From assembly GCA_950295325.1 (NCBI GenBank), contig OX485806.1:1054001-1118000 (forward strand): a stretch of DNA of 64,000 nucleotides. The letters run 5' to 3'. A model generated the notes under the pieces. The model had not been told where the DNA came from and did not search any database. It saw nothing but the letters and a program-made list of their open reading frames with translations. The number at the start of each line of letters is the position of its first letter. Within the stretch, counting starts at the first letter, position 1. Both the position numbers and the translations under genes were made by a program. This document shows positions 11,857-48,700 of the stretch, piece by piece. The DNA is from Polytrichum commune (Eukaryota > Streptophyta > Polytrichopsida > Polytrichales > Polytrichaceae).

Positions 11857-14573
11857 CTTGCATGATATAAAATGTGATTGATTAACACTTCAATATGAGT
11901 CACATTGCTCTATTTACGGTATTTAGTGTCACTTACACTATTGGAAGTACGCAATGCTATAACTATTATAGATCTCATTCTTTTTAATCACCAACAATCA
12001 ATTTGGTTGTTTGGACATTATAGAACATTAACATATTTACTTGGTCAAAACTTATGTTAATAGATACACATTATAACAATGTGTGACTCCAAATAGTAAG
12101 TGACAACCAACACCCTAAATGGTGTAGTGAGCACACGGAACGTGTAACATGAACACTAATATCAAGAAGTATCTTATTCAAACCACGTGCATTGAGTGTG
12201 CAAAGCATTTTTCACAACCCTATCTTAGCGGGTTTTCTACAATATCTACACGATGAAGACATTGAGACCGAAAAAATCAACCTTCCGGATTCTTAAAATA
12301 AAGTTAAAACTTCAAACAAAATCCCAAGATGAAGTCCTCCGTGTCATAGGGATTGATCTAAGTGAATTCACAATGACTTAGAATCCACACAACTTGTGTG
12401 TTCACTACAATTGCTCAAACGACTTTATATGTATATAAAGTGACAACGCCATCGTTTAGGATTATAACCACAAGGTTGGGGTGAATGAAGGATACTTCAC
12501 CCAAATCATAGTTGCAAGCTCATATGTGAATCACTTTTTCATGCTTTTGCAAAAATACGGTGGTGGGGGCGTAACCTTAGACTATTTTGAGGAGGCTTGG
12601 TTGTAAGGCACCTATTATGTTGCATGTTTGAGGCCCAAGTCCAATTATGTCTTAGTGGCTTTTCGGGTACACTTGCATTGAGAATATCGAAAGGTTTTGG
12701 GAATGTATCGACCATACTTCTATGTATATTGTCGTTCCAAAGTTCTCCAAAGTGCACGATTTGAAGGCCAATGTGGCCAACGATGTAGAGGAGTTTTTGG
12801 CATGCCTCTCACAAACCCAAATTGTGCTTTAACCCTTAAAGGTCAAAGTCATTTTCACATAGTAAGACAAATTCTTCGGTTTCATAACCAACCAAAGTTG
12901 TAACGTAAGTAAGTAAAAACTATGGGAAGCAAAGTTGTCACTGTTGGTTTAACCCCTAGCTTCTCAAGCAACCAACTTTTGGTTGATGGATGAGTTTTTC
13001 CCTACATTAATCCCACCTAACTCATTCATCTACAATCAAAATAATTATAAACATCAAGCCAACATGGATATCTACGCATAGACACATGAGCAGCGTAATT
13101 TGTAATTGATTAGAATGTGTAAAAATATGTCAAAGCGGGAAGTGATCGTGTTTTTGTTGTGTTGTGAGCTCATGTGAGGGTGTTGACTCCCATCAATAGT
13201 TGCCACTTCAATGCAAACTCTACACAAACATCAAAGATGTTCATTTGGTAAAAGTGAAATGTTATTTGGTGTTCATGTAGAAATGGCCTTTGTGCTAACA
13301 TCGACCGTTCCCATTTCCACATTTGGACATAAGGAATTCTTTGCATATACGTGGTTAGAAATATAGAATAAATTACATGCTCCAAATGCAAGGTGGGCAA
13401 CCTATTGCAATTGGCACATTGGCATGAGAATTTGTGGAGGTGCTCAATAATTCAGTTGTTCGCATCTAATGGATTGCACAAGCCATCTGCTTATTTTCCA
13501 GGTTAATTTGATTGGTCAAAAGTCTTTTAATGGGGATAAAACACGGAATTTTCTCGTGTACCACTTCCTTCAATTCTCATAATCTAAAAATTTTGAAGGT
13601 TATTTGAGCCCGTTTTCCTTCGTTATAGCTCATCTCTCATGTTTCAAGATCCTATGGACAAATCTCATTCTAACCTCAAAACTTGTCCATGTGAATTCCA
13701 CAACCACCATTGAGTGAGATGCACTCAAAACAACCCTTTCATGGGCTTGAGAAGTTAAGCATAAGGAATCATGCAACAAGTCTTCAATGTTTGTGTGTGT
13801 ATATATATATATATACACATACATTGTTCTCAAATAACTTGGTGAACTCATGCCCGCTCCATGGTAAGCTTTTAGAGCTCAAATTGAATAACATCATGCA
13901 TGCGGTGTCTTGCATAGGACATACAACGCATGCACCTATCTTGAATCACAACTTATACTGCATTTTTACACATGGGTACAAATTCAAGTATGAAATTTAC
14001 ACATTCAAATAACCCATTTTGGATCATCTACGATGTTTTCTTTGGAGACCATTAATACCCGGTTCAAACTAAAGATAACAAATGTGAATGGATTTGGGCA
14101 TGTGCTCGTGTAGGTTTTAGTTTGGTTATTGGACCTATGCGTATCTTGAAAGTTAACCCTATAATCACCCCAATAGGTGCATGCATCTAATGGTCCTTGT
14201 GATACCATAGACTCGGTTGGGCAATCATGTCGGCCCAAGCCTTGGAAGACATAAGTTGTATTTGACACGTCACCTGGTCATGGAGCCAACGAAAGACATG
14301 TAGATATTTCCCAAGCATACATGCCCCTACTCTAAGGATCGAGCCACAAGGACATGTCCACCCTTTTTTTTTAAACAAAAATGAAGGGTCCACGTCCACA
14401 TTGTACCCATCCAACAAACGGAAGGGTTGGCGACCTTGCCATTGGTACCCATCTCATAATTGTAGTGCTCAAGAATGGGCAGGCTTGGATTGTGGATGGG
14501 CGCCCTGATGATAATTGCCCACCCTACAACTTATTTGGATATTTGCCTCCCCTTCGTTCCTACCTCACATACT
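11857..14573. other. No gene recognised; (TA)n at about 13800-13815
   Basis: AT-rich intergenic sequence. Short ORFs at 12539-12903, 13170-13400, 13630-14012 and 14005-14620 give no recognisable domain. A short TG/TA microsatellite lies at 13790-13815. Confidence 0.5.
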
Positions 14574-15000
14574 GCAGCTCTTTAGCAGTTTGGGCACCTT
14601 TTTGCCTAATAATTAATTAAAGTGTGAAAGTAAGTTAGGAAACCCATAAAATAATATTTTAGAATCAGGTAAATTAAAAAATTACAAGTTATATATTCAT
14701 CCACGTCGTTCTTGTAATTCATGGATGGTTCCCCTAATTTCATACATGGCATCTACGCTTGATCTAAACACCTCCCTTTACCAACATTCCTTACCCTAAA
14801 GTTTGTCTTTTACTTATATGTTAAGGTTTTGCTTGACAACATATTTTGCTTTGATTTGATGCTACTTTGTTGGGATTCATTGAATGTCACTTGCATTGTT
14901 GTAATTTTTTTGCACTCTTTGAATGTTATTTGTTTATTTATTTGACACTCAACGAAATTTATGTCCTAGAAATTTAGGCACCTTTAAAGTTAATTATTTT
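14574..15000 (+). repeat. Repeat family K, copy 1 (lacks the TTAA-flanked insertion)
   Basis: Begins GCAGCTCTTTAGCAGTTTGG and contains TAATAATTAATTAAAGTG, AACCCATAAAATAATATT, AATTCATGGA, CCAACATTCCTTACC and CTTTGAATGTTAT in the same order as 24742-24871 plus 25702-25980. Here the sequence is continuous across about 14696, where copy 2 carries an 826-bp insertion. The right terminus is diverged. Confidence 0.82.
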
Positions 15001-23660: not shown

Positions 23661-24741
23661 ATGTGTGGAGGAAACTTGCATCACTGCATGCCACATGGAC
23701 CCATGACCATCATGATTCCATGATCATGGAGAATGGGCAAAAGGCATAAAGAACGATGCCGATGTAGTGATAGAATGAGCAATCGAGTTTTAACCCTTAA
23801 TTTCTTAGAGCTTATTGTGGTTCATCTAAAAACTAAGCTTTCTTGCCCTCAATTTTTATTGTACCTAAAGAAAACAAATTGTTGCTAATGATTTTAAGGT
23901 CACATCAATATGCTAACAATATATAGTAATTTTCATGTTTTGTTTGTAATCAATTTGGAATCATTAAAATTCAACAAAATGCGATTGATACATGCAATAG
24001 ACTATAATCCAAACTTTGAAGATCATACACACACTTTGAAGTAATAAAAGAAGTCCACAAAAATTTGGCATTTTTCAATCAAAATAATATGGAGTTACTA
24101 CATACAATGAAATATCAACAAAAGAGAAAGTACACCCATTCCGGATTTCAAAAATATTTTATTGAACAATCTTCTTTTCATATTGGAATGGGATTATGAC
24201 TATTAACAAGAAAATTTTATGTGGAACACAATTATACCTATTACGACCTCCTTAGCACCTTCCCTTTGCCTTTCAAGAGTCACTCATAAGCCCAAATATG
24301 GCCTCTTCGGAATAAAAAGGCCTATTAATGAGTTGGTGCCAAGGACAACACTTCATGGGGTGTAAGACTTAAGTAGGACATGTCTAGGTAGTGCTCGTGA
24401 ATGCTAAATAATTTGGCAAAATATTCTTTGGTACTTGGTGGTAGGGTCACTTGTACGTTACTCCACTTCAATGAAAAGCTTGGAAACTTCAACCCATAAG
24501 CTAAAGGGCGTTGGAGGAAGCATGAAGCAACGACACCCACCCCTAAAGTGGGCCACAATTGAAGGAGAGAGGGAATTATCATATACGAGCCTACCTCTCA
24601 TCATCCATCCTAAGAACTTGACCCTTATAGATGTGTTGCCGAATTGTCTCAAATGACCTTGAGTACACTAACTCAGGATTTTTAAAGCTAGCTCCGGTAT
24701 GAGATTTACTAAAATATGTAATCTTCGGGCTACATACTAAT
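23661..24741. other. No gene recognised
   Basis: AT-rich intergenic sequence with short overlapping ORFs (24325-24656) that lack recognisable domains. Confidence 0.5.
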
Positions 24742-26015
24742 GTAGCTCTCTAGCAACTTGGGCACCTTTCTAGCTAATAATTAATTAAAGTGCAAAAGTA
24801 AGTTAGGCAACCCATAAAATAATATTCTAGTATTGGGCAGTTTCAAAAAGTAATTTAACATAAGTTAGACATTAACCCCTAAGTGCCCGAGCAACCATAT
24901 ATGGTTGATCAAAAATTTCGGCTCGTTTGTGTGTGGGCAGGTAAAATTCCTTTGACCACGTAAATTTTTTTGGCGGGCAGCATGGAAGGGCAACTTTTGG
25001 ATTGAGGCATTTTTGACCAAAAAGAGTAAATATTCGATTTTAGAGAGGGTCGCAAAGGCATATATGTCCGTGATGTAGGGAATGGGTGGAGAAAGTGCTT
25101 TACTATTTCCTCAATGTTTCAGCTAATTGGACTATTGTACTTGTTTTTGACATCCAAAGAGTTCTCATTATTCATTTCTTTTGAAAAGTGTCGTAGTGGA
25201 AAGACTAAAAAAATTCCGTATTTTTGACCGTTGAATATGAGTATTCACAATTACCAATGTGAAGTAATTTGCAATATCAAATCGTCAAGTGTTAAAATAA
25301 AGAAAATGCATTTCAAGAATTGCAAGGAGGATTGCGAAATGATTGGGATAGCTCTATATGCATACATAGGGTCTTTGGAATCACATTTTCGTATTCTTTC
25401 ACATGTTGGAGTTGTTCATGTCACCTCAAACTCCTAAAAATACTTATGAGCAAATCATACCAACATTGTGGGGAGGGGCAACATACAAAAAAAAGAATGT
25501 ATACATTTCTCTTGTTTGAATCTCACAACTCTTATGCAATCTCGGTCTCAAAATTGGTATGCATACTAATAAACAAGTTCTTTAAACATCTATACGGTTA
25601 GATTTTGGATAAAAGACAAATCCCTCCATTGGGGATTGTATTAAACCCATGCACATATTTCTTAGGAAAAGTGCATTCCGAAAGGCTTGGGCACTTAGGG
25701 GTTAATCCAAGTCATTTCTATAATTCATGGACGATTTTCCTAATTTCACCTATGGCGGTTACGATTAACCTAAACACTTCCCTTAACCAACATTCCTTAC
25801 CTTAAAGTTTGTCTTATACTTGTATGTCAGGGTTTTGCTTTGTGTGAGAGTTATACAAAGTGGTCTTTGTGACAGACTATGTTACTTGCATTATTGTGAT
25901 TTTAGGCACTCTTTGAATGTTATCTCTTTTCTTAGACACTCGACAAAATTAATTTCTCAGAAATTTAAGCACCTTCAAAATGAATTATTATCTGCCCAAG
26001 TTGCTAGAGAACTAC
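24742..26015. mobile_element. Repeat family K, copy 2: 23-bp TIR element split by a TTAA insertion
   Basis: The left terminus 24742-24764 (GTAGCTCTCTAGCAACTTGG and on) matches the reverse complement of 25993-26015 with one mismatch in 23. Without the 826-bp insertion and one 4-bp duplication, the element is about 444 bp and aligns with copy 1 at 14574-15000. It has no coding capacity and is a non-autonomous TIR (MITE-like) element. A flanking duplication could not be recognised. Confidence 0.78.
24876..25701. mobile_element. 826-bp non-autonomous element with piggyBac-like ends (TTAA flanks)
   Basis: The left end CCCCTAAGTGCCCGAGC (from 24876) and the reverse-complemented right end CCCCTAAGTGCCCAAGC (from 25701) match in 16 of 17 positions. 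Each end is bordered by TTAA (24872-24875 and 25702-25705). TTAA target duplication plus a terminus starting with a C run is the signature of the piggyBac superfamily. The related repeat copy at 14574-15000 is uninterrupted at the corresponding position, acting as an empty site. Internal ORFs (25231-25437, 25320-25601) have no recognisable transposase motif, so it is likely a MITE or decayed copy. Confidence 0.78.
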
Positions 26016-42700: not shown

Positions 42701-45700
42701 TGTAGAAACGGTTGTTTGTGTGCAGGAGAAATCTGCCTGTGTGCTCATTGATCTATGTGCAGGCCCACTTGCACCATGGCTGGCTATGATTATAGCAAAG
42801 GTGACGCACTTTCTCAAACATTTATCTTTTGCATTCAAAGAGTTTGAAAAGCAAAATTCTTTTACATATGTAACTCAAATCTGTAACCATGTTTGATGTT
42901 TTGAAGTCATTCTGAGTAAACTTGGAGTCTTAATATATCATGTTTTGCTTGGACCAGGTTGACTTGGCCATTGAGCTGCTAGAAGATCTATTGGGCATCA
43001 TCCAGGTTCCAATCTCTGCCGCTTCTGAATACACCCTTGAATTTATCGATATTTCATGCTTATTTATGACCCATTCTGGAGTCTGCAGACCACCATGTTT
43101 ACACTTTTTATGAACTTTTAATACATCGGTCCTGTGTGACTAAGGTTTGTATGTGTAGTCTATCATTCTGCCCCATCATATTTAGAGCTATTGAGTACAT
43201 GAGTTGGAAATCTTAGTATTATATTTATAAGTTGTTGTACAGGCAGGTCAGCAGGCACCAATGCAAGCTCGTGCAGTTCTGGTGTACATGTTGCTGGCTC
43301 TTTCTGGGCATGTGGATGATGTTCTCCCACAATACAAGGTACATTTAACTATTCAGTCCATTTTACCTCGAGCAGAGGGTGACATGGCCATATGAGTATG
43401 CTTGGGAAGATGTTTTCTGGATTTCATGTCTTTAGCTCTGGTGATATGTGAATGGTGATGGATTCCCAATACTGGTCACTTATTTAATCAATTCTTTGTT
43501 GATAACTTACATTGCTGGTCGTTATGTCCAGTCAAATTCAAAAGTTACATGTGACACATTCTATGTCAGAGGAACCCTGAAATATCTGTGACCCTGAGTT
43601 TGCTTCGAAACGCATAAACAGAAGATGGCCATCTCAAGACTTGATCTCTTGATTTACAGCAAAAACTTGAATATAAAAGTGGTTGTACCCATTTCACCAC
43701 AATTAGCTGGGATCTCAGAGTCTGATAGCCAATTGACACACCTATTTGAATCCCAGTTGACTGTGTGTGCAATTTCCAAAGTAGTAATCAACATTGCTCT
43801 TTCAATGGTGAATGCAGAATGTGAAGCACAAGGTGCTTTTTGTCATTGAGATGTTGGAGCCGTATCTCATACCAGCAATCATGCCTGTGAAAAGCACCAT
43901 AGCTTTTGGGGATGTTTCAGCAGTGGTACTAGAGAAACATGAAAAGACATGTTCCTTGGCCCTTGAGCTGCTACAAACTGCACTTCAAAAACCTTCAGTT
44001 CTACCTGCTATGGAAGCAGAATGGAGGCGAGGTCAGGTTGCACCTAGGTAATGTTGTCACCGTAGACCTTATATTTTGGATCGTCAACATGGATGCATGA
44101 CATGTGTTCTTGTATGTTCATGATAGTAAGATTTTCATTATGTGGTTTCAACACATTGATGAGTTGGCTCCATAGTGAAGTAAAATCTGACAAAAGGCTG
44201 ACGCGGGGATTCAGGGCGCAGCATAGAAAATGCTGGAGAGTTCGTATGAGCAGAATGAATAGATTTATTTATTTATTTCTACCAATAGGCAGACGGCATC
44301 TAAATCTCTGCTTTATTATTCGGGTTTCAGGTTCCCCTTGAGAAGAGCCATATAAGGCTGTAGGCTTACGTACGGTTCAGAAGTCAAGCCCCTGCAGTAA
44401 TCACATGTCTCATTTAGCTTTGTGAGCAATGGGACAAGTGCTTGCGATCGGGCTTTGCACCAAAATAGTTTGATTATAGGAAGGTTCTGCTTTAAAAGCA
44501 TCAACAATCAACAGTGCTCAAACTGTTCTTCTATAACAACATCACATAAACAATGGTGAGCTAAGACAATGGTGAGCTAAGACAATGGTGAGCTAAAACA
44601 ATGGTTAGAATTGAGTATATGTCCAAGAACTATCACTAGTTTAGACTTCTGATAGTAGGGTCATGGGTAGAGGAAGCATCAAATGGTATAGATGTGTTTA
44701 TGGTGCAGTGCTATAATGTGCTGACGTATCGCTGTCAAGCAAAGACACATATACTTTGGCATCCTAGATATGGCATGTGAATCATAATCTCATAGTCCAC
44801 ATTTGAGATCAAAATATTGAAGAAAATGAGGGTAGGAGACTTCTAGCCTAGGCCATTCTCATCTTTTCTTTGTGACAACATGGTTTTTTTGTGCGACTTC
44901 TTTGCAGTGTTCTTCTGTCGATATTGGCTCCACATGTAGCGCTCCCACCTGGAATAGATCTCCTAAAGTGTAGGAGAGAGAGAACTGGTGCATGTGAAGT
45001 AAGCCCTGTTCCTGATGGTCAGAGTATCATCAACTTTGGGACAACTGCTGAAGCAAGTGGTAAGTCGGGACATATCCCTAGTGATATGGTTTGTTTGTTA
45101 TTCTGTGGAATCTAGTTGAGTCTGGAATATACATACATATGTATGTTACACTTTTGTTGTTCCAGACTGTGATGATAGACTGATTGTTATTTCACATGTT
45201 TCTTGACACTTGAAATATGTTTTTTAACAGCATTAGCCTCACTTATTGATGTTAGTCGATTAATGAGTCTTTACAGTATTGGTTTGGCCATGATAGAATG
45301 TTATTTCTGTCTACAATACTTCACTAAATCTCTCTGCTGCTTCTGACCTTTATGAGCAGTAGGCCCTATGTCGGTGGCTGAGGGGGCTATTAAAGGGGAA
45401 ACAAATGAAGATGCGAATTTACTATTTGCACCTCTAGAGTTGAAGGGCTTGGCATTACTCAGCCTAAGCAGCCAAAGTGAGGGGACTTTATCAGAAGACA
45501 AGGCCTTCCTGGATGTGCTGGCCAAGATGGAGAGGAAATCAGGAAAGAAACTACTCTTTGACTTAAGAAGTGATGAACATGAATGGGATCTTCGTAGTGA
45601 ATATTGGCAACTAGTCAATAGTCCAGAACGTGAACTACGAGCTTCCGAATTTATCCGCTTTGCATCTGAGCTTCATATGCGGCAGGACGAAAGTACTGAA

Positions 45701-48700
45701 AGTCAACAATCAGCAATTGATGCTCTACTTCTTGCAGCAGAATGCCATGTAAATCCATTTTTTATGATCTCCTCCAGTGAGTATCAGAACCTGGTCAGTA
45801 AATCAGAAAATGAGTTCCCCATAAACCCTAACATTGAATCATCAAAGAAAACTCCTGGGCTTGACATGCTAGCCTGGCTTGAAGAGGAACGGGACAAAGC
45901 AGTTTTGAACATCCTCATGCGAGCAGCAGAATGGGGTAATGTAGGATTTATTGATGGCAAGAGCACAAACGGAGAAGAGGGGGTTGGTGATCCAGATGAA
46001 TGTTCCTGCCATATAGAGATTGATGAAGAGGACAGTAAAATTGAGGATGCAGTTACACTGGTGAGGCAGCGGCAAGGGCTGCTGTGTCAGTTTCTTGTAC
46101 AACAACTGCAGAGAGATCGTCATAACCTTTATGAAGTTCTCTTGCAGGGTCTTCTATTTGTTCTACACTCTGCAACTAAGCTTTCGTCACCCCCTGAAGA
46201 TATAATCGATGTGATCCTAGCGTGTGCTACTCGTTTGAATGCCTCATTGGTGGCCTATCATAATCAAGGAAATCATGGAGTACTGTCGCAAGGGCCAGGG
46301 ACTTTTCATAGTGTACGGCGTCAGTGGGTTCTATTACGGAAGCTTGTCCTTGTGGCAAGCGGTGGTAGACTACTTGAAGGAGGGAGCTCATCAATTTATC
46401 CAGAAGTCAATCAACTGCATCAAGACTTAATTCCAGGCTGGGCATGGATGTCCCGAATTCCAAAATTCTCTGAATCTACTTATCCTCTGGTTCGGTACAT
46501 TGTCTGGCTGGGAGTGTCTCAATTTGCCCATTCTCAGTCCAAATCTGCTCGGCCTCTTGTAGCTGACATACAAGATCTTACCAACTTACTTCTTATATTT
46601 TCTGATGAACTTGTTTCCGTAGAGCTTTTAAAATATAAGGAATCAAGTGAGGAAGGACCTGTTGTTCAGGCTTCACTTGAAGCTGCCAACATGGTCAGTA
46701 CACTTCAACAACTTGAGCAAGTTGATCCAGGAAGTTTGGCAAAAGTACTGTATCCAGAATTCAGCCGTGTATTCCCAAGGTTGAGAGTGGAGTTCAGCCA
46801 ATTTGCAGATACTCTGTTACAGTCCATATGCTCACAAATTGAAGCAGTACCTTGTAGTTTCATCCCTGATATGCTGAGCTGGTTTTCTGATGTGTGTTAC
46901 AACCCTTTTCCTGGCAGACATGACACAGAGAGCCAAGGCTTGGGAATGAAGGGTTTTACTGTAGGGAATGCCCGATATGTTATCATGCGTCTGTTGGAGG
47001 TGATTATCCTAGAGCATATGGAAGCAATTTTACCTGAGCTTACCCGGGTTTTTCAAGTTCTCGTCTCACTGTGCTCAAGTGGCTATTGTGATGTTCCATT
47101 ACTAGAGGCAGTCCTGAAGGCATTGAAGCCTATCATTTCCCATGCAACGTCAAGTTCCACAGCTTATGAAGGAGAAATGTCCGTTGAGATTTTGTCTTAT
47201 GAGACAATCATGCAGCAGCTAAGCAAGGCTCTCGATAACACTCACCAGCGAACCGGAGTTAAGAGTTCATTATGTCTCTTTCTATGTGGGTTCCTTCTTT
47301 CAAGTTTGTCTACCACTAACTGCAACAAAGTTTTGACTAAGCTTAAAAGCTGGGTTGAATCCACAAACTTTGGGTCATCTTCGACAGGTTCTGTACTGGA
47401 CAATCTTTCTGCTTTTCACAAGATACTAGATGAATGTCTCAGTCTACTCAAAGGGATGGCGGGTGATGATATTGTGCACCCTACTGATAAAAGTGATGTT
47501 AGCCCGCAACAAGGGTTGCATTCTCTTCTTGACAATTCCAAACCTCTGGTTCTAGGGACACCTGAATCTGAAGTTTCAAACTTTTCAGTGGTAGGTGACA
47601 TCACTGAGGCATCTTTGGGTGAAGAGGTTGAGGTCAGCCTTGCAAATGGAGAAATAGATGACAAAGAGATTCTGGAAAAATCTGAGGGTAGTGACTCAGC
47701 AGGCAACACCTATGTCCAACAAGCACAGAATTCATCTGATAACCTAAAATTTGGACAAAATGTTCAAAATCTAGTATTAGCATTAGGCCCAGCTTTGGAG
47801 ATTGCAAGAAACCTGCATCCACAATTGGCAAGTGTGGTAATTTTGGCTGCAGCCCGGTGTTTACATCATGCAGGGGACTGTCAGCCTGCCATAGCAAAGT
47901 CAGGTGCAGAGAGTCAGTTCTTAAAACCATCAGTGAAGGCTCTTGCAGCATCTATACTAAGTTTTCAGAAAATTCATTGCTGGCAAGTTGCAAGCACAGC
48001 TATGGAATACTTACTCAGTTTACCTTCTACCGTGGATGCTTATGAAGATATCTGCATGATATTAACGTATCAGTGTACTCATGCCCCAAGAGTAACTTGG
48101 CGTTTGCTACCCACACAGTGGATTGTTAAGGCCTTTCCATACAAGTCACTGGCTGGATCGTCAGAATTGCTCATTCAGTTGCTGTGCACTATGCTGGAGC
48201 ATCCAGAGCCAGAACAACATGCAGGTGCTTTGAGGCAGATTGAAAAAGTGGTTGACGATGAAGAGAATAACATCAAATCCGCAACTAGGGAGGCTGAACA
48301 TGGCGTACGAGATCAAAGAACGGTTGTGGAGACTTTTGTCTCAGCTATGTGGGTTCCAGTTGTGACAGCTGCTACAACACACAAGTCTACAAACTTGAAG
48401 AATCGAGCTCTAGCAGTTCTCATAAAGATGGTACCATTTGCAGAGTCTACACAACTCCAGTCTCTCATGAGTTCTATTGACATTGTGTTCAAGACGGAGC
48501 CTTTGACCCCGTTAGGTCTTTCACTGCTAGCTCGGGCATGCCTCTACTCAAGTGCTGCTGATCTGGACATTATACCTTCACGAACTTGGAACAGGATCCA
48601 GACCTTAGCCCAATCAAAAGCTGGTAAAGGCTTCTCATCAATTCTGAGTTTTCCTCTAATCTTGTCTTGAGTGTAAAGAAAATATGTCTGCTGGCACATT

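What the first reader, a model, noticed from the sequence alone, without database searches (positions are those of the whole stretch)
24872..25705. TTAA-flanked 826-bp element with piggyBac-like ends in a land-plant genome, with an apparent empty site 10 kb away
Seen: TTAA on both sides, 16/17 matching termini beginning CCCCTAAGTGCCC, and interruption of a repeat (family K) whose other copy at 14574-15000 is continuous at the matching place (about 14696). Known: TTAA target duplication and C-starting termini characterise piggyBac, which is well described in animals, fungi and some algae but, as far as I know, rarely in land plants. Inference: a piggyBac-derived MITE family is or was active here.
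Basis: partly seen in the sequence, partly recalled or inferred. Interest (0 to 1): 0.8.

Follow-up and report, generated by a model that had tools for sequence, protein, structure and literature searches.

The report
Recently mobile piggyBac in a plant
The 826-bp insert is a shortened, non-coding copy of a piggyBac "jumping gene", and the same land-plant genome also carries complete parent elements with unbroken transposase reading frames, so a transposon best known from animals has moved recently in a plant.

Summary
Confirmed. Window 24876-25701 is a non-coding 826-bp element bordered by TTAA. In its genome 145 ends match the terminus exactly and 144 have TTAA outside; the exception has TCAA. 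All 20 fetched copies are TTAA-bordered at both ends. The predicted longer relative exists: 118 matches to piggyBac transposase domain PF13843. Five have an uninterrupted 564-aa frame and lie in 6.0-6.4-kb elements with TTAA at both ends and nearly the same termini. The 826-bp element is an internal deletion: its first 194 and last 634 bp match a 7.3-kb relative at 91% and 95%. Three 826-bp copies are identical on different contigs, and two large elements are 99.9% identical over 5.3 kb, so movement was recent. The "empty site" is a repeat whose usual target letters are TTCA; the insertion sits in a rare TTAA variant. The host is a land plant, probably a moss (inferred). The superfamily is known, and "plants" appear in print; no complete piggyBac-plus-MITE set in a bryophyte turned up in the papers searched.

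The parts
24872..24875 (.). left copy of the TTAA target duplication
   Evidence: TTAA at this place in 20 of 20 fetched copies
24876..25701 (+). 826-bp non-autonomous piggyBac element (MITE): about 194 bp of the 5' end and 634 bp of the 3' end of a longer element; no ORF of 100 aa or more
24876..24892 (+). 5' terminal inverted repeat CCCCTAAGTGCCCGAGC
24892..24907 (.). 16-bp subterminal palindrome CAACCATATATGGTTG; the three large elements read have CGACCATATATGGTCG at the same place, so both arms changed together
25068..25069 (.). approximate junction of the internal deletion (5' match ends at element position 193-194, 3' match begins at 193)
   Evidence: the same junction in L042, L043 and L044
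25685..25701 (-). 3' terminal inverted repeat, CCCCTAAGTGCCCAAGC on the - strand
25702..25705 (.). right copy of the TTAA target duplication
24740..24871 (+). left part of the interrupted repeat K (outer limit approximate)
25706..25960 (+). right part of the interrupted repeat K (outer limit approximate)
14560..15000 (+). uninterrupted paralogous copy of repeat K, with TTCA at the matching place near 14696 (limits approximate)

Best explanation
The feature is a MITE (miniature non-autonomous element) of the piggyBac superfamily. It arose by internal deletion of a longer piggyBac element, probably once: the same junction is seen in the window copy and in the three other copies examined for it. 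It spread through the genome by cut-and-paste movement. A piggyBac transposase encoded in trans by the 6.0-6.4-kb relatives binds the short inverted ends and perhaps the nearby palindrome, excises the element, and inserts it at TTAA, duplicating those four bases. Shown: TTAA borders, shared ends, deletion structure, intact transposase frames with the three aspartate motifs, and identical or near-identical copies at different sites. Inferred: that this transposase moves this MITE, that the palindrome is a binding site, and that excision is precise.
For: TTAA outside 144 of 145 exact ends (the reversed-pattern control finds 0). 118 PF13843 matches, five with a 564-aa frame without stops. Pfam E 2.6e-80. 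Sequence match to solved piggyBat and to the transposase chain 6x67, with the three aspartate motifs aligned. Large elements run TTAA to TTAA and their 5' terminus equals the MITE's at 16 of 17 positions. Of 10 exact autonomous-type 5' ends, 9 lie upstream of a PF13843 match and the tenth is itself a MITE. The transposase frame differs between the C1 and C7 subfamilies by 0.10, 0.11 and 0.40 at codon positions 1, 2 and 3, as under purifying selection. The MITE matches element C7 at 91% (1-194) and 95% (193-826). Recency: three identical MITE copies; 3 mismatches and 1 gap in 5324 bp between two large elements.
Against: No transposition or excision was observed, and no expression data were available. 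The large element closest to the MITE (C7, 95% over the 3' part) has a transposase match with two in-frame stops, while the C1 and C2 elements with intact frames are only 78-79% like the MITE in that part, so cross-mobilisation across about 20% divergence is assumed. Whether an intact copy of the C7 subfamily exists was not tested exhaustively. One of 145 ends lacks TTAA.
Confidence: 0.93

Rival explanations
1. A Tc1/mariner (Stowaway-like) MITE with a TA target duplication, always found inside TTAA. Because TTAA is palindromic, the filled site would look the same.
For: The filled sequence T-TA-ACCCC...GGGGT-TA-A cannot be told from TTAA-CCCC...GGGG-TTAA at a canonical site (reasoning).
Against: Elements with nearly the same ends encode a piggyBac-type DDE domain. 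The one non-TTAA end (TCAA, with TTAA at the 5' end assigned to the same element) does not separate the two models. In the K copies fetched the target reads TTCA, which holds no TA, and the copy that was hit is a TTAA variant; this fits both models.
Confidence: 0.03
2. A Tourist/PIF-Harbinger MITE with a three-base TTA or TAA duplication, a usual plant MITE of this size (recalled).
For: Common in plants, A/T-rich target (recalled).
Against: With a three-base reading the two sides differ (TTA on the left and TAA on the right, or TAA and TTA), so there is no direct repeat. The related large elements encode a piggyBac-type transposase.
Confidence: 0.01
3. The MITE is piggyBac-derived but was mobilised by another piggyBac lineage of the genome (family B, frames of 931-952 aa) or by a transposase of the C7 subfamily, now lost or not found.
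For: The C7 subfamily is the closest source (95%) and the copy examined is broken. Family B frames are conserved at the protein level in the four copies compared.
Against: No TTAA-bordered inverted ends were found within about 4 kb of the one family B copy examined. Family A elements carry almost the same termini and palindrome.
Confidence: 0.25
4. Contamination or assembly artefact (for example animal DNA in a plant assembly).
For: piggyBac is best known from animals (recalled).
Against: The scored MITE copies and the PF13843 matches lie on all seven of the contigs C1-C7, and the window copy lies inside a host repeat that is spread over the contigs.
Confidence: 0.01

Closest known systems
piggyBac superfamily transposons (Trichoplusia ni piggyBac, piggyBat of Myotis)
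   Same: DDE domain PF13843; three aspartate motifs aligned with piggyBat and with chain 6x67; TTAA borders; short termini that begin with C
   Different: Elements of 6.0-6.4 kb against 2472 bp for IFP2 (abstract opening of PMC10803768 in the listing); two further conserved coding stretches upstream of the transposase frame without an accepted Pfam match; terminus CCCCTAA(C/G)TGCCC; land-plant host
piggyBac-related MITEs of animals (for example the coral MITE paper PMC2872659, seen only as title, term counts and abstract opening in the listing)
   Same: As far as the listing and recall go: short, non-coding, TTAA-bordered elements linked to piggyBac
   Different: Plant host; deletion structure traced to a source subfamily in the same genome
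Plant entries called PiggyBac in repeat tables (Ceratopteris, 1230 fragments and 122,417 bp, PMC6890710; superfamily 'found in all taxonomic groups studied', PMC4438587)
   Same: Same superfamily name in land plants (one passage of each read)
   Different: Those passages are annotation counts or lists; they show no ends, target duplications or intact transposases

Membership tests
piggyBac superfamily (large relatives) | DDE_Tnp_1_7 (PF13843) transposase | tested here: met
   118 matches in the genome, best 272 bits against a cut-off of 22.4; E 2.6e-80 for the 564-aa frame
piggyBac superfamily (large relatives) | Catalytic aspartate triad (DDD) | tested here: met
   TVDEMM, VMDNFF and GVDVADQ present in 5 of 5 intact frames and aligned with piggyBat and 6x67
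piggyBac superfamily | TTAA target duplication | tested here: met
   144 of 145 exact ends; 20 of 20 fetched MITE copies at both ends; 5 of 5 intact-frame elements at both ends
piggyBac superfamily | Short terminal inverted repeat beginning with C (recalled) | tested here: met
   CCCCTAAGTGCCC...; 16 of 17 matched
piggyBac superfamily | C-terminal cysteine-rich zinc domain | tested here: inconclusive
   Last 65 residues hold 9 Cys and 9 His, but Pfam reported only PF13843 at E 0.01
piggyBac superfamily | Excision that restores TTAA without a footprint | not testable with these tools
   Needs individuals or an assay
piggyBac-derived MITE | Short, non-coding, many copies, ends shared with an autonomous element | tested here: met
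   826 bp, no ORF of 100 aa or more; 40 of 40 scored places; ends shared
Tc1/mariner (Stowaway) | mariner-type transposase | tested here: not met
   Relatives with nearly the same ends encode PF13843
Tc1/mariner (Stowaway) | TA target duplication | tested here: inconclusive
   TA inside TTAA cannot be told apart at canonical sites; the one exception does not decide
PIF/Harbinger (Tourist) | Three-base TTA/TAA direct duplication | tested here: not met
   Left and right triplets differ

The most novel reading that the evidence does not exclude
A land plant, probably a moss, carries a piggyBac lineage that is still or was very recently mobile. Its transposase gene is enlarged by upstream exons that encode new conserved N-terminal segments, and a single MITE founder amplified after its 5' terminus changed to match its 3' terminus (CTAACTG to CTAAGTG). 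A second, deeply diverged set of piggyBac-type proteins (931-952 aa) in the same genome could be a further plant lineage or a host-adopted gene family.
Probability: 0.4. Interest if true: 0.68.

Novelty: new member of a known kind. Interest (0 to 1): 0.52.

Why it matters
piggyBac is a main tool of animal genetics. In the passages I could read, its presence in land plants is a line in repeat tables or lists. Large, near-identical elements with open transposase frames and a matching MITE family in one plant genome would give a natural plant piggyBac system to test, and a way to ask how the superfamily reached or persisted in land plants. The MITE and its parents also allow a direct test of which end sequences control mobility.

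Tried and rejected
Horizontal source: the 564-aa transposase searched as a single protein against viral contigs gave no relative; 3 stretches matched a pattern and none was confirmed. That mode finds close relatives only.

N-terminal domain: two conserved stretches upstream of the transposase looked Tudor-like to me by eye. Pfam gave no accepted match: one hit at E 0.23 to Beta-lactamase2 among 5 segments searched up to E 10, and one below its cut-off to WXG100_2 (19.7 bits against 27) in a longer frame of the C7 element. PDB profiles gave, for family B, designed PPR proteins at E 0.00025 with no stretch passing on its own, and for family A designed knot proteins at E 0.012, again with no stretch passing; I take these as chance. 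The family A and B segments do not align convincingly (hhalign P 0.07, probability 0.8%). I make no domain claim.

Family B ends: no TTAA-bordered inverted ends with at least 11 of 14 or 9 of 12 matches within about 4 kb on either side of the one copy examined, so family B is not claimed as a mobile element.

Host identity: the terpene synthase search found nothing, and its own control was silent, so it says nothing. The species was not determined.

Literature: ten searches listed no paper whose title or abstract opening describes a complete piggyBac element in a bryophyte. I read passages of seven papers (one search was not held), which makes six read and one missing. PMC10619864 holds the string only as 'piggybacking'. 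PMC8319324 (a Stipa genome, listed with one occurrence) was not opened. A review of piggyBac evolution in Genome Biol Evol (recalled) is not held. Most subscription papers are missing from the library, so this is weak evidence of novelty.

Counts: one search used the 100 listed places of 145, and 14 of those ends stayed unpaired. The 20 copies compared are the 20 most similar to the window copy, so their divergence (median 1.2%) is biased low. One search listed 100 of 216 places; its reversed-pattern control found 1, and a 16-base match alone does not prove that a place is a K copy. One search compared two large elements over 5.3 of 6.07 kb; the first part of one was not fetched.

Full report
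What is there. The window holds an 826-bp element at 24876-25701 with TTAA on both sides. Its ends are inverted repeats alike at 16 of 17 positions. Among all pairs of the window's 289 TTAA sites that lie 100-3000 bp apart, no other pair has inner ends matching at 13 or more of 17 positions. No frame of 100 aa or more overlaps the element.

Copies in the genome. The window lies in a 408-Mb assembly with 64 contigs. The 826 bp found 103 first-look candidates, of which 40 were scored; 40 of 40 cover nearly the whole element, 39 at positions 1-826 and one at 3-826, at 97-100% (the window copy is one of them). In all 20 copies fetched, both ends coincide with the window copy's and both flanks are TTAA, while the outer flanks differ. 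The terminus CCCCTAAGTGCCCNAGC occurs 145 times, and 0 times read backwards. With TTAA in front it occurs 144 times. The exception, at C3:47659623, reads TCAA. It lies next to a transposase match on the same strand, and the 5' end that I assign to the same element from its position, at C3:47665773, has TTAA, so a later substitution is the simplest reading. Of the 100 ends listed, 86 form 43 facing pairs: 41 measure 804-827 bp, and two measure 1329 and 1383 bp. The two long ones are the same MITE with extra sequence inside. 14 listed ends stayed unpaired.

The coding relatives. PF13843, the piggyBac transposase domain, matches 118 places; none of the tool's 14 control genomes rings. Many of the 118 carry stops or are partial. 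Five have a 564-aa frame without stops. Pfam confirms the domain (E 2.6e-80), and among solved structures the sequence matches piggyBat and the transposase 6x67 with the three aspartate motifs aligned. In all five frames the motifs TVDEMM, VMDNFF and GVDVADQ are present. By their end coordinates the five sit in elements of 6068, 5980, 6068, 5979 and 6384 bp, counted with both TTAA, each with TTAA at both ends. I read two of these end to end (C1, C2); for the other three only the ends and the transposase part were seen. A sixth element, on C7, was read end to end: it is 7321 bp and its transposase match carries two stops. Of the ten exact autonomous-type 5' ends, nine lie upstream of a PF13843 match and the tenth belongs to a MITE.

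How the small element relates to the large ones. MITE positions 1-194 match the start of the C7 element at 91%, and positions 193-826 match its last 634 bp at 95%. Against the C1 and C2 elements the figures are 82-85% and 78-79%. The same junction is present in the three further copies examined for it. The MITE is therefore an internal deletion, probably with one founder, derived from the C7 subfamily. One MITE (L042) still has the ancestral 5' terminus CTAACTG; it is the only MITE among the ten exact ends of that type, while the 43 pairs all have CTAAGTG, which matches the element's own 3' end better. The 16-bp palindrome at 24892-24907 differs from that of the three large elements read at two mirror-image positions, as expected if the symmetry itself matters. 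32 of 2000 shuffles of the element contain a palindrome of that length, so its length alone is only mildly unusual; its conserved place and paired change are the stronger point.

Selection and age. Between the C1 and C7 subfamilies the transposase frame differs by 0.10, 0.11 and 0.40 at codon positions 1, 2 and 3, the mark of protein-level constraint. Two shorter upstream stretches show a similar codon pattern; they may be further exons, but no transcript was available and no accepted domain match was found. Recent movement is shown by three identical 826-bp copies on contigs C1, C4 and C5 and by two large elements on C1 and C3 that differ by 3 mismatches and one gap in the 5324 bp compared.

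The empty site. Joining the flanks with one TTAA gives a sequence that aligns through the junction with the K copy at 14560-15000. In the genome, 40 of 40 scored places (753 first-look candidates) match the joined 300 bp across the junction at 84-92%. In the eight fetched copies and the window's second copy, the four target letters are TTCA. In a 16-base pattern that allows both forms, 98 of the 100 listed places have TTCA and 2 have TTAA (216 places in all; reversed-pattern control 1). The insertion therefore most likely entered a K copy that carried a rare TTAA variant, which is itself evidence for the target rule.

The host. 28 NAC-domain matches, 14 to the first part and 14 to the second part of the domain, so about 14 genes, and 27 lipid-transfer-protein matches point to a land plant; that these families mark land plants, and that so few NAC genes suggest a bryophyte, is recalled. 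Contig lengths seen are 77.9, 70.3, 59.2 and 42.1 Mb for C1, C2, C3 and C7, and matches reach 49.3, 49.8 and 42.3 Mb on C4, C5 and C6, so there are seven chromosome-sized contigs. This fits the seven ancestral moss chromosomes mentioned in passages of PMC10619864. It is an inference, not an identification.

What is known. A passage of PMC8086355 says that piggyBac-like elements occur in fungi, plants and metazoans, and one of PMC10813416 says much the same. A table in PMC4438587 lists PiggyBac as found in all groups studied, and the passage names land plants as one of them. PMC6890710 counts 1230 fragments in a fern. PMC10794571 names PiggyBac among plant superfamilies and mentions its use as a tool in plants (passages). 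The ten literature searches named under Tried and rejected listed no description of complete elements in a bryophyte, in a library that lacks most subscription papers. The finding is thus a new member of a known kind, unusual for its host, completeness and recency.

Noticed in passing
L026, L027, L029, L030; six more PF13843 places with frames of 938-949 aa (C7:41455644, C7:20355950, C7:5642077, C6:41610118, C4:27166291, C2:62699755) whose kinship was not tested: A second set of piggyBac-type proteins with frames of 931-952 aa in three of the four copies fetched (L029 has a stop), about 38% identical to the 564-aa family over the transposase, with third-position divergence about three times that of the other positions. 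The homology starts at a CAG|G that looks like a splice acceptor. No TTAA-bordered ends were found within about 4 kb of the one copy tested; they could be another element lineage or adopted host genes.
   Followed up: partly
24740-25960 (interrupted), 14560-15000: Repeat K is a very abundant family (753 first-look candidates; 40 of 40 scored at 84-92%). What kind of repeat it is was not determined.
   Followed up: no
45368-48670 (+): An 1100-aa open frame with no Pfam match at E 0.001.
   Followed up: partly
L042 (C3:5177660-5178530): A MITE copy with the ancestral 5' terminus CTAACTG, 96.6% like the window copy, with the same deletion junction; it may be close to the founder.
   Followed up: yes
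L031, L032 (upstream of the transposase frame): A 671-700-aa open frame, part of which differs between copies of the element by repeat-like insertions, while a stretch nearer its start is conserved.
   Followed up: partly
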